Shown here one piece after another: positions 874-11,122 of a stretch of 11,854 nucleotides of DNA. The position numbers and the translations under genes were made by a program. Each line of letters opens with the position of its first letter. Position 1 is the stretch's first letter. The stretch comes from Deltaproteobacteria bacterium (GTDB lineage Bacteria > Desulfobacterota_B > Binatia > UBA9968): contig VBKY01000197.1 in assembly GCA_005879255.1 (NCBI GenBank), positions 1-11,854 on the forward strand, given 5' to 3'. The notes beneath the pieces are model-generated. The model was not told the origin of the DNA and did no database searches. It worked only from the letters and a program-made list of their open reading frames with translations.

Positions 874-885
874 AAAGCGTTAAAC

Positions 886-946
886 GTTCAAGGTTCAATC
901 TCCTCTTGCCGACATTGAATTCTTGAACCCTTGAATTGTTGAGTCC
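886..946. repeat. Mirrored octamer-repeat hairpin element between prpC and prpD
   Basis: The right arm (915-946) is four consecutive 8-bp words starting TTGA: TTGAATTC, TTGAACCC, TTGAATTG, TTGAGTCC. The left arm (886-899) holds two inverse words, TTCAAGG and TTCAAT. The stretch 887-898 pairs with 923-935 through 12 base pairs and one bulged C, around a loop of about 24 nt. The element fills the prpC-prpD gap and ends 13 nt before the prpD ATG. It has the same design as the elements at 5744-5820 and 11027-11085, though the words differ. A transcription attenuator or mRNA-stability role within the operon is inferred, not shown. Confidence 0.7.
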
Positions 947-4202: not shown

Positions 4203-4232
4203 TCGCGAGGGTGAATTGAGTCACCCTCGCGA
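4203..4232 (+). terminator. Perfect 12-bp hairpin after the small membrane-peptide gene
   Basis: TCGCGAGGGTGA (4203-4214) and TCACCCTCGCGA (4221-4232) are exact reverse complements separated by ATTGAG. This GC-rich stem begins 12 nt after the small gene's stop codon. No T-run follows, so termination might depend on Rho or the hairpin may protect the 3' end, but position and stability fit a transcript end. Confidence 0.55.
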
Positions 4233-5743: not shown

Positions 5744-5820
5744 ATTGGAGTAAGGGATTATTGGAGTGTTGAGGTGGAGCGCATACCCATTACTCCAACA
5801 CTCCAACACTCCAATACTCC
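5744..5820. repeat. Mirrored octamer-repeat hairpin element before the carboxylase-like gene
   Basis: The right arm (5792-5820) is 3.6 copies of an 8-bp word: ACTCCAAC, ACTCCAAC, ACTCCAAT, ACTCC. The left arm carries inverse copies: ATTGGAGTA (5744-5752) and ATTGGAGTGTTG (5760-5771). The latter is an exact 12-bp reverse complement of 5804-5815. The element starts 11 nt after the binding-protein stop and ends 39 nt before the next start, so it could act as a terminator or mRNA stabiliser between the two genes. Its design matches the elements at 886-946 and 11027-11085. Confidence 0.75.
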
Positions 5821-9895: not shown

Positions 9896-11122
9896 ATGCC
9901 GACCCATATCGTGATCGATGCCGATGGCCATTGTAACGAACCGGATAACGAACTCGCCAAATGGATGCCCAAGGAGCTCGCCCACCTGGCGCCCAGTCGC
10001 GTGACAGACAGCAGCGGCTATTCCCATTTAATGATCGAGGGCCGGCTCGCCGGACGACGACGATGGGGCGGCGGCACCGACCGCTGCGCCGTATTCGCCA
10101 GTCACATTGAGCGTAGCCGCCCGGGCATGACCGATCCGTTGAAACGACTGCCCGATATGGACGAAGAAGGTATCGACGTCGCGATTATCTTCGGAACTTC
10201 CATCGCGCTGATGGTTAACGGCATGGCCGACAAGCCGCTCGCCGCCGTGATTTGCCATGCCGTGAACCGCTGGCTCGTCGAAGAATATCTCGCGCCTGAC
10301 CCGAAAAGACTGAAAGGCGTCGGCTTGATTCCCGTGCAAGACCCCCCATCCGCTGTGAAGGAATTGGAGTATTTGGCGCAGCATCGCGCCATCGTTACCG
10401 CTATGCTACCGACCAACGTCTATGGCATCAATTTAGGCCACCGCATGTTCGATCCGGTTTATGCCGCGGCGCAAGAGATCGGCATGCCCTTGTCAGTTCA
10501 CCCGCAAACCGAACATGACGGGCAGTATGGCGTCTGGGGCGTCATGGGCGCCGGCAGCGAGCGCATGGAAAAATATAGCTATGTGCACATGACGTCGTTT
10601 CCCTTCGAATTGATGATCGCGCTCATGCACATGATCGGTGAAGGGGTATTCGACCGCTATCCCAAACTTAAAGTCGGCTTCATGGAAGGCGCCTGCGGGT
10701 GGCTGCCTTTCTGGATGGAACGATTGGATGAGCATTTTCACAAGCTCGGACCGCAGTGGCCGCTGCTCAAACGCAAACCTTCCGAGATCATCAAGAGCTC
10801 CCAAGTCGCGTTTACTTGCGAGCCCGAAGAATCGATTTTACCCTACGTCCTTGATACCATCGGCATCACCCAGGTGATGTACGCGTCCGATTACCGCCAC
10901 TGGGACTCCGAGTTTCCCGACTCCGTGCGCGAAGTGAAGAAGATCCCGGGCATGACCGAAGACCAACTCCGCCACGTGCTCGGCGAGAACGCGCGGAATT
11001 GGTTCAATTTAAAAGAGGGGAGGATGGAGAATCGAGGATCGCGAACTCCGATCCTCTATCTGCCATTTTCTATTCTCGATTCTCGGCTATGCATCAACGC
11101 TTCTCCGCCCACACCTGATTGA
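9896..11122 (+). CDS. Amidohydrolase (Amidohydro_2 family) with an unusual C-terminal tail
   Basis: A cytoplasmic metal-dependent hydrolase or decarboxylase of the Amidohydro_2 (ACMSD-like) type. The metal-binding signature IDADGHCNEP gives Asp10 and His12. His202 lies in SVHPQTEH, FMEGACGWLPFWMERLDEH is the conserved helix region, and Asp332 lies in MYASDYRHWDSEFPDS, where members of this family have the final metal ligand. AAGGAG (9885-9890) is a good ribosome-binding site. Homologous sequence ends at about Lys373 (ENARNWFNLK). The last 35 residues (RMENRGSRTP...) are encoded by a hairpin repeat and by the end of the convergent gene, which it overlaps by 29 bp. This tail is probably an accident of stop-codon loss. 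Proteins of this family act on aromatic or carboxylated ring compounds. The substrate here is unknown. Confidence 0.9.
   Translation: MPTHIVIDADGHCNEPDNELAKWMPKELAHLAPSRVTDSSGYSHLMIEGRLAGRRRWGGGTDRCAVFASHIERSRPGMTDPLKRLPDMDEEGIDVAIIFGTSIALMVNGMADKPLAAVICHAVNRWLVEEYLAPDPKRLKGVGLIPVQDPPSAVKELEYLAQHRAIVTAMLPTNVYGINLGHRMFDPVYAAAQEIGMPLSVHPQTEHDGQYGVWGVMGAGSERMEKYSYVHMTSFPFELMIALMHMIGEGVFDRYPKLKVGFMEGACGWLPFWMERLDEHFHKLGPQWPLLKRKPSEIIKSSQVAFTCEPEESILPYVLDTIGITQVMYASDYRHWDSEFPDSVREVKKIPGMTEDQLRHVLGENARNWFNLKEGRMENRGSRTPILYLPFSILDSRLCINASPPTPD
11027..11085. repeat. Mirrored heptamer-repeat hairpin element inside the amidohydrolase 3' end
   Basis: The right arm contains the 7-bp word ATTCTCG twice in tandem (11072-11085). 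The left arm contains GAGAATCGAG (11027-11036), the exact 10-bp reverse complement of 11075-11084. Nested within is a second perfect hairpin: GAGGATCG (11034-11041) and CGATCCTC (11049-11056) around CGAACTC. The element lies at the end of two convergent genes and could terminate both. It resembles the elements at 886-946 and 5744-5820 in design but not in words. Confidence 0.7.

What the first reader, a model, noticed from the sequence alone, without database searches (positions are those of the whole stretch)
886..946. Octamer-word hairpin element inside the prp operon, with two look-alikes built from other words
Four 8-bp words in tandem (TTGAATTC, TTGAACCC, TTGAATTG, TTGAGTCC) are preceded by inverse words, so 12 base pairs can form. 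Two other gaps in this window (5744-5820, 11027-11085) repeat the plan with unrelated words: tandem 7-8-mers on the right, degenerate inverse copies on the left, roughly 20-40 nt between. Elements sharing a design but not a sequence would be missed by ordinary repeat searches. Heptamer STRR repeats in cyanobacteria are the nearest parallel I know, but those lack the obligate mirrored arm. Inference: copying by slippage within a hairpin arm, or maintenance as terminators or attenuators.
Basis: partly seen in the sequence, partly recalled or inferred. Interest (0 to 1): 0.75.

Follow-up and report, generated by a model that had tools for sequence, protein, structure and literature searches.

The report
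Mirrored tandem-word hairpins between bacterial genes
Many bacteria carry, in the small gaps between genes, hairpins whose two arms are built from short repeated 'words'; each species uses its own words, and in related species the same gap can be empty or hold the same design spelled differently.

Summary
Three gaps of this Candidatus Binatia window carry hairpins whose arms are both tandem arrays of degenerate 7-8-nt words (E1 TTGAANNN, E2 ACTCCAAY, E3 NATTCTC). No held genome contains the window, so I tested the idea in other lineages. The design recurs in Betaproteobacteria, Nitrospirae, Verrucomicrobia and a Pelobacter genome; 100 kb of E. coli had none. Vocabularies are species-specific: within one betaproteobacterial genus one species has 167 matches to a TTCACNN triple and 11 to a CTCTGTGNN triple, another 0 and 90. 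Across 14 orthologous gaps, related species have the gap empty or filled, and in 5 gaps filled with different words. The purine-rich arm is 5' in 55 of 61 elements. E3 has replaced the last codons of a gene. Best reading: miniature foldback-like dispersed repeats that copy within genomes and remodel their words. The copying enzyme is unknown. Terminators, REP/RAYT and strict hairpin-templated copying are not supported as general explanations. A published precedent exists for one word (Xanthomonas GGGAATC, often in convergent pairs, read as G-quadruplex). Hence a new, wider variant of a known kind.

The parts
880..900 (+). E1 left arm: TTCAA words at 7-nt spacing, starting 7 nt after the prpC stop codon (871-873)
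   Evidence: sequence; period-7 self-match 0.71; pairs with the right arm
915..946 (+). E1 right arm: TTGAATTC TTGAACCC TTGAATTG TTGAGTCC, just upstream of an ATG of prpD at 960
   Evidence: Tandem Repeats Finder 915-942 period 8; period-8 self-match 0.64; 0 of 1000 Markov windows with this arm pair
5744..5776 (+). E2 left arm: degenerate GGAGTNNN words, period 8, starting 11 nt after the stop codon of the NMT1-type substrate-binding protein gene
   Evidence: inverted repeat I1, 84%; period-8 self-match 0.64
5787..5820 (+). E2 right arm: ATTACTCC AACACTCC AACACTCC AATACTCC
   Evidence: Tandem Repeats Finder 5792-5820 period 8; self-match 0.85; fold z -5.8/-6.8
11019..11042 (+). E3 left arm: GAGGATG GAGAATC GAGGATC heptamers, replacing the native 3' end of the amidohydrolase gene
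   Evidence: Tandem Repeats Finder 11020-11041 period 7; self-match 0.76; protein comparison
11048..11084 (+). E3 right arm: GATCCTC TATCTGC CATTTTC TATTCTC GATTCTC heptamers, ending about 10 nt from the stop codon (11094-11096) of the convergent substrate-binding protein gene
   Evidence: period-7 self-match 0.67; 0 of 300 Markov windows

Best explanation
E1-E3 belong to a widespread class of miniature foldback-like dispersed repeats. An element is two facing arms, each of about 2-8 tandem words of 7-9 nt (a 5-7-nt core plus 1-3 variable spacer bases), around a variable loop (5-14 nt by my arm borders in this window, 22-89 nt in the CACAGAG family), usually with the purine-rich arm 5' on both strands. 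Elements spread as copies inside a genome by an unidentified route (shown, in betaproteobacteria: related copies at several places, empty orthologous gaps, genome-specific words; inferred: the copying itself). Their words then change by slippage and mutation, both arms keeping the same word family. They persist mainly in gaps and at gene ends, perhaps because the 5' arm usually brings stop codons (the stops are shown; that they are the reason is inferred).
For: Recurrence: 33 calls in 330 kb of betaproteobacterium G003; ten Markov passes of its 314-kb sample 0-4; seven other genomes. Period: 27 at 7 nt, 5 at 8, 0-3 at each other period 4-20. Vocabularies by species. Copies: in G003 at least 8 of 33 elements align over 90 nt or more, loop included, with another place at 71-80%. 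In G163, 27 oriented elements have cores and GC borders invariant but for one site at 96%, and 11 of 26 loops score 14 or more against a reference loop, rejected orientations at most 4.1 (the orientation was chosen by that score). Turnover: outside G003, 11 of 103 gap sequences filled, different words in 5 of 14 gaps. E3: 18 of 19 close homologues keep a C-terminal tail that the window gene has lost to E3. Purine arm 5' in 55 of 61; stop triplet in 80 of 95 5' arms vs 23 of 95 3' arms.
Against: No enzyme, target duplication or autonomous partner is known; of enzymes only Y1_Tnp was searched. Arrays without a facing core are as common as two-armed ones (56 of 103), and in G082 and G006 facing cores are not above the swapped-core rate. 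12 of 33 G003 elements had no match elsewhere in the sampled DNA. G163 loops are on average only slightly more alike than shuffled loops, 0.71 vs 0.64, with orientation chosen to favour likeness. No Binatia genome was reachable, so copying was not shown for E1-E3 themselves.
Confidence: 0.53

Rival explanations
1. Local growth: a short word at a gene end (often including the stop codon) is amplified by slippage, and a facing arm arises by template switching within a hairpin; no copying between loci.
For: The upstream stop codon lies in the first word in gaps C and g2 of several species; arrays without a facing arm are common; arrays of identical units exist; orthologous elements at g3 in G003 and G161 share the loop type but differ in words in both arms.
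Against: Genome-specific vocabularies shared over many loci and homologous copies. Inner spacers are systematically unpaired, which templated copying would correct.
Confidence: 0.23
2. Recognition sites: an RNA- or DNA-binding factor reads the repeated core (translation, mRNA decay, nucleoid or G-quadruplex function), so selection keeps the core and frees the spacer.
For: Core invariance against variable spacers in G163; published proposals for TAACTGA (translation; PMC4679880 abstract and two sections) and GGGAATC (G-quadruplex; PMC4692102 passages and two sections).
Against: Words differ between sister species and between gaps of one genome; orthologous gaps mostly lack a called element (11 of 103 filled); the main cores here hold no GGG; core 7-mers outside elements are not clearly enriched (11 seen, 6.5 expected).
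Confidence: 0.13
3. Intrinsic terminators or attenuators.
For: E2 and two betaproteobacterial examples fold well (z -5.8 to -9.0); the G163 family has A-rich left and T-rich right flanks about 8-11 nt from the borders; on the minus strand TTTT follows E3 after 4 nt and E2 after about 7 nt.
Against: A terminator consensus scan reports none of E1-E3 (6 sites found, shuffles 14.3; its loop limit is 8 nt). Gap types at about background: tandem 23, convergent 6, divergent 7 of 47 against 62, 17 and 21 gaps (crude ORF caller, one element counted twice). E1 lies inside the prp operon.
Confidence: 0.07
4. REP/REPIN-type elements moved by Y1 (RAYT) transposases.
For: Small, intergenic, many copies, hairpin, species-specific.
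Against: G003 and G163, the species richest in the two tested words, have no Y1_Tnp match; tandem-word arms and loops of 22-89 nt are not the REP form described (PMC3733652 abstract).
Confidence: 0.04

Closest known systems
Heterogeneous heptamer arrays (GGGANTN)n of Xanthomonas (PMC4692102; passages and two result sections read)
   Same: Degenerate heptamers, mostly four units, intergenic, close behind the upstream gene, often (70 and 75 cases) two arrays in convergent orientation that can form a stem-loop; long arrays not at the same genes in two related species
   Different: One G-rich word in one genus (a similar one in Nostoc, rarely paired), read as G-quadruplexes; here many unrelated words, the main ones without G-tracts, several phyla, and orthologous gaps with different words
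TAACTGA heptamer repeats of Beggiatoaceae, and STRR heptamers of cyanobacteria (PMC4679880, abstract and two sections read; STRR recalled)
   Same: Intergenic heptamer arrays; stop codons in the forward reading noted there as shaping their distribution
   Different: Fixed word, direct repeats (169 sets and one indirect repeat per the abstract)
REP / BIME / REPIN elements (PMC3733652, abstract read)
   Same: Intergenic hairpins, high copy, species-specific families, presumed mobile
   Different: 20-40-bp palindromes, most with GTAG or CGTC tags; tandem words in the arms are not part of that description
Eukaryotic foldback (FB) transposons (recalled; only a search listing seen)
   Same: Inverted arms made of tandem short repeats around a variable centre
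   Different: Much longer and eukaryotic; the bacterial elements are about 60-130 bp with 7-9-nt words
Small dispersed repeats SDR4-6 of Nostoc (recalled; not found)
   Same: Families alike in structure but not in sequence, nested in heptamer arrays
   Different: 21-27 nt, no tandem words in the arms

Membership tests
Xanthomonas-type heptamer arrays (PMC4692102) | heterogeneous tandem heptamers, core conserved and spacer free | tested here: met
   (periods 8 and 9 occur too)
Xanthomonas-type heptamer arrays (PMC4692102) | paired convergent arrays forming a hairpin | tested here: met
   E1-E3 (E3 weak by energy); 47 of 103 arrays with a reverse-complement core
Xanthomonas-type heptamer arrays (PMC4692102) | G-tracts of three or more per word (G-quadruplex) | tested here: not met
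   cores TTGAA, ACTCC, TTCTC, GTGAA, CACAGAG hold no GGG on either strand; some other words do (e.g. ATGGG, CGGGT)
REP/REPIN | GTAG or CGTC unpaired tag at one end | tested here: not met
   absent around E3; in E1 the only GTAG overlaps the prpC stop codon; E2 has one GACG; the G163 family border is GC
REP/REPIN | RAYT / Y1 transposase in the genome | tested here: not met
   Y1_Tnp 0 matches in G003 and G163, present in 11 of 15 species of the genus; draft genomes; not testable for the window's own genome
Intrinsic terminators | stem directly followed by a T-run | tested here: not met
   no site at E1-E3; flanks (TTTT only 4 nt out at E3 and about 7 nt out at E2, minus strand)
Miniature inverted-repeat / foldback transposons | dispersed copies and empty orthologous sites | tested here: met
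   (betaproteobacteria only); E3 insertion inferred from proteins
Miniature inverted-repeat / foldback transposons | target-site duplication | tested here: inconclusive
   filled and empty gaps compared by eye; flanks too diverged
Miniature inverted-repeat / foldback transposons | autonomous partner with matching ends | not tested
   only Y1_Tnp was searched
STRR / TAACTGA repeats | one fixed heptamer as direct repeats | tested here: not met
   many words per genome, facing arms
Rfam RNA families | match to any of 4227 models at gathering score | tested here: not met
   window 0 matches; 14 loci of 120 kb, only a tRNA

The most novel reading that the evidence does not exclude
A writing process: some bacteria have an enzyme that extends a gene-end hairpin by repeated copying of a short template (realigning on the core, loose at the spacer, as telomerase-like synthesis would), so each lineage writes its own vocabulary into its gaps and elements arise de novo as well as by copying.
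Probability: 0.1. Interest if true: 0.88.

Novelty: new variant of a known kind. Interest (0 to 1): 0.6.

Why it matters
If right, a common class of bacterial intergenic repeats has been overlooked because it is defined by layout, not sequence. It would explain many hairpins in gaps that are now called terminators or simple repeats, give a fast-evolving marker of genome-specific vocabularies, and pose a testable question: what copies the words, and why 7-9 nt with a free spacer. It also suggests that a G-quadruplex reading of the Xanthomonas case cannot be general.

Tried and rejected
Own-genome search: not possible, no genome held. Binatia DNA through viral contigs with the carboxylase gene: none. 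The one genome-contig scan used PrpD and brought only distant loci, at most 71% identical. E2 words with one mismatch in 50 diverse genomes: 0 of 50. E1 words: 4 of 50 genomes; of five places viewed, at least three looked one-armed by eye. Plasmid collection: one partial match each for two betaproteobacterial elements, none for E2. Flank complementarity beyond the words: suspected from two gaps; tested on 45 elements it is not above re-paired flanks (0.35 vs 0.40), rejected. Stop codons in all three frames: 48 of 85 5' arms against 24.5 expected with word columns permuted (maximum 38 in 200 runs), but GTGAA dominates; by distinct core 25 of 32 have a stop in the 5' arm and 12 of 32 in the 3' arm, so this is kept as a trait, not a proven function. 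Enrichment at 3' ends: not seen. DNA-uptake-like single words: no clear excess. Terminator scan of the window: nothing at E1-E3. Literature: brought the Xanthomonas and Beggiatoa precedents; in what I saw of their listings no paper describes the general design. A stem-loop survey (PMC2267715) holds none of the words tandem, heptamer, internal repeat or direct repeat. Subscription journals are mostly not in that library.

Full report
What the window is. The 11.9-kb window carries the end of prpC (citrate-synthase family), prpD, a prpB-like gene, two NMT1-type substrate-binding protein genes, an HMGL/PYC-type carboxylase gene, a DUF2459 gene and an amidohydrolase gene. The carboxylase is 97% identical to a protein deposited as Candidatus Binatia. 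I tested the same idea in genomes reached through other loci.

The observation. E1 (880-946), E2 (5744-5820) and E3 (11019-11084) are as described, and both arms are tandem in each. Self-match at the period is 0.71 left and 0.64 right for E1 (period 7 left, 8 right), 0.64 and 0.85 for E2 (period 8), and 0.76 and 0.67 for E3 (period 7), with at most about 0.4 at the other periods tried. A scan that knows no word (a 5-mer repeated at 7 or 8 nt with its reverse complement in a separate arm) finds E1 and E2, 0 in 50 resampled windows and 0.014 per Markov window. It paired E1 with a TTCAA at 974; the true arm pair was tested separately (0 of 1000 Markov windows), and E3 likewise (0 of 300), with thresholds chosen after the fact. 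By folding energy E2 is strong, E1 modest and E3 weak. E1 starts 7 nt after the prpC stop, E2 11 nt after a stop codon. No terminator-like site is reported at any of the three.

E3 is an insertion into a gene end. The amidohydrolase frame runs through E3. Of the 19 closest homologues, 18 end in a tail with LP or MP after the NWFNLKE-type block, and one record ends early. The window gene matches up to NLKE and then reads the element, so E3 has replaced the native last codons and stop.

Recurrence. The same scan over 80 loci of distant relatives gave 15 calls in 1.30 Mb against 5 in one resampled pass. Among them were clear cases with other words in Betaproteobacteria, Nitrospirae, Verrucomicrobia and a Pelobacter genome, and some single calls that look like chance or coding repeats. 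In the betaproteobacterium G003 it gave 33 calls in 330 kb. Twelve of the 20 fetched stretches were chosen around known TTCAC arrays; the eight others (80.6 kb, short contigs) held one call, so that density is biased upward. Ten Markov passes of the 314-kb G003 sample gave 0 to 4. Samples of seven other genomes, some stretches again chosen near known arrays, gave 2-5 calls each against 0 or 1. E. coli K-12 gave none in 100 kb. In G003 the period peak is sharp: 27 calls at 7, 5 at 8, and 0-3 at each other period from 4 to 20. In the other 79 loci the counts at 6, 9, 12 and 15 are 10, 14, 14 and 7, presumably coding repeats, next to 11 at 7 and 2 at 8.

Anatomy. Without asking for a mirrored arm, six genome samples hold 103 arrays of three or more cores at 7 or 8 nt (Markov 8). 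In 47 of 103 the reverse-complement core lies within 110 nt. By genome it is 30 of 66 in G003, 5 of 6 in G127, 5 of 6 in G011, 3 of 3 in G005, 3 of 16 in G082 and 1 of 6 in G006, against swapped-core rates of 0.24, 0.55, 0.29, 0.53, 0.30 and 0.34, so G082 and G006 do not show mirroring. Purine-rich arrays have the partner downstream 24 times and upstream 2 times; pyrimidine-rich arrays upstream 14 and downstream 1 (6 more have both). Among the 61 two-armed calls the purine-rich arm is 5' in 55. Counting both strands, arms of 12 nt or more hold a stop triplet in 80 of 95 cases as 5' arm and 23 of 95 as 3' arm; by distinct core it is 25 of 32 and 12 of 32. E1 and E3 fit this poorly: E1 has one TAA in its left arm but its TGA words in the right arm, and E3 lets translation run through. 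In 17 GTGAA hairpins the two arms agree in period (0.91 vs 0.70) and first spacer base (0.63 vs 0.39), not in the last base; within G003 alone, 9 elements, P is 0.04 and 0.01.

A family in detail. 47 hairpins (38 in G163, 8 in G168, 1 in G171; one G163 element is counted twice because it ends two contigs) follow gc[CACAGAG NN]n - loop - [CTCTGTG NN]n gc, found by the core with up to one mismatch; 32 have three cores in each arm. In 27 oriented elements of G163 the core and border positions are at 100% except one at 96%; spacers are at 37-81%, and flanks are not shared except A/T-rich positions about 8-11 nt out. Loops are on average little more alike than shuffled loops (0.71 vs 0.64), but 11 of 26 score 14 or more against a reference loop while rejected orientations reach 4.1 at most; orientation was chosen by that score. 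The inner spacers face each other unpaired (9% vs 34% in re-paired arms; outer spacers 53% vs 49%), partly because the family has an orientation with AA facing AA. Strict copying of one arm from the other would have removed this. Gap types are near background. Flanks beyond the words are not complementary.

Vocabularies and turnover. The following are pattern matches, so a long array counts several times. Within the 15 species of that genus, exact TTCACNN triples number 167 in G003, 45 in G160, 31 in G162, 11 in G161, 4 in G173 (where the backward control gives 35), 1 in G165 and 0 in nine species including G163, G168 and G171. CTCTGTGNN triples (one mismatch allowed) number 90 in G163, 38 in G168, 30 in G171, 11 in G003, 1-9 in eight species and 0 in three. 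In the order around G003, 26 of 150 genomes have TTCACNN triples. I compared 14 gaps in G003 with every species whose flanks could be aligned (117 gap sequences). Eleven were chosen for a called element; g5, h2 and k3 are other gaps of the same regions; three further stretches printed (g4, h3, h4) were left out as coding or poorly bounded. At two or more links G003 is called in 11 of 14 and the others in 11 of 103; shuffles give 7 of 2120. With one link allowed it is 35 filled of 117, but then shuffles give 10.6%. In five gaps (B, C, g3, h2, h5) different species carry different words; in gap C the G003 array has no true facing arm, its partner core lying in the next gene. The clearest is g3: GTGAAA in G003, GTGAAGGA in G161 with the same kind of loop, GGTAAGC/GGTGAGC in G162, CACAGAG in G168, CCAAGACG in G173, and 22-27 nt with no element in G171, G166, G167, G165 and G163. 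In gaps C and g2 the stop codon of the upstream gene lies inside the first word in several species. The fill rate outside G003 is low, so I see no evidence that these gaps attract elements more than others.

The window's own words elsewhere. The ACTCC triple occurs in 47 stretches of IMG/VR contigs. E2-type hairpins (GGAGTNAT... ...ACTCCAAY) are clear in L256 (two), in L275 and in L237, whose element is the same as the one in L270. The triple is absent from 50 diverse genomes. E1 words occur in 4 of 50, with 23 matches in a Verrucomicrobia genome, many in one array.

Mechanism. Copying inside genomes is inferred from homologous copies, shared vocabularies and empty orthologous gaps. It is not shown for the Binatia elements. 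How copies are made is unknown: Y1 transposases are absent from G003 and G163, no target duplication could be read, and no other enzyme was sought. Word change in place is suggested by the G003/G161 pair at g3. The stop-bearing 5' arm offers a simple reason why such elements are tolerated at gene ends; MacGregor made a similar point for TAACTGA repeats (section read).

What is known. [quoted passage not shown] My results extend this layout to many non-G words and several phyla, and show that related species carry different words in the same gap. The tested features of REP elements and terminators are not met. I therefore call it a new variant of a known kind.

Noticed in passing
L105:14904-14988, L106:6546-6640, L108:7095-7198, L110:18906-19014, L298:4408-4514: Several GTGAA hairpins carry a second hairpin in the loop, CCCTCTCCC...GGGGGAGAGGG or like it, i.e. 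composite elements; it is kept in the orthologous gap g3 of G003 and G161.
   Followed up: partly
L182 (G171), orthologous gap B: Where G163 and G168 have CACAGAG words, G171 has an unrelated GCTCCCGCGAAAGCGGGAG...CCCGCTTTCGCGGGAA hairpin in the same gap.
   Followed up: no
window 4203-4232: Perfect 12-bp inverted repeat TCGCGAGGGTGA / TCACCCTCGCGA with a 6-nt loop after a short reading frame.
   Followed up: no
L256 (IMG/VR contig, 12.4 kb): Seven scan calls in one contig, among them two ACTCC hairpins about 500 nt apart; its host was not determined and some calls may be chance.
   Followed up: no
L057:9829-9926 (Marichromatium gracile): Long array of CAGCTAC units (11 links) with a partial facing arm.
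   Followed up: no
L106:18265-18300 (G003, gap C): One-armed array GTGAACGGTGAAGGGTGAAGGGTGAAGGG whose first word holds the upstream stop codon and whose end sits where the next gene's ribosome site would be.
   Followed up: partly
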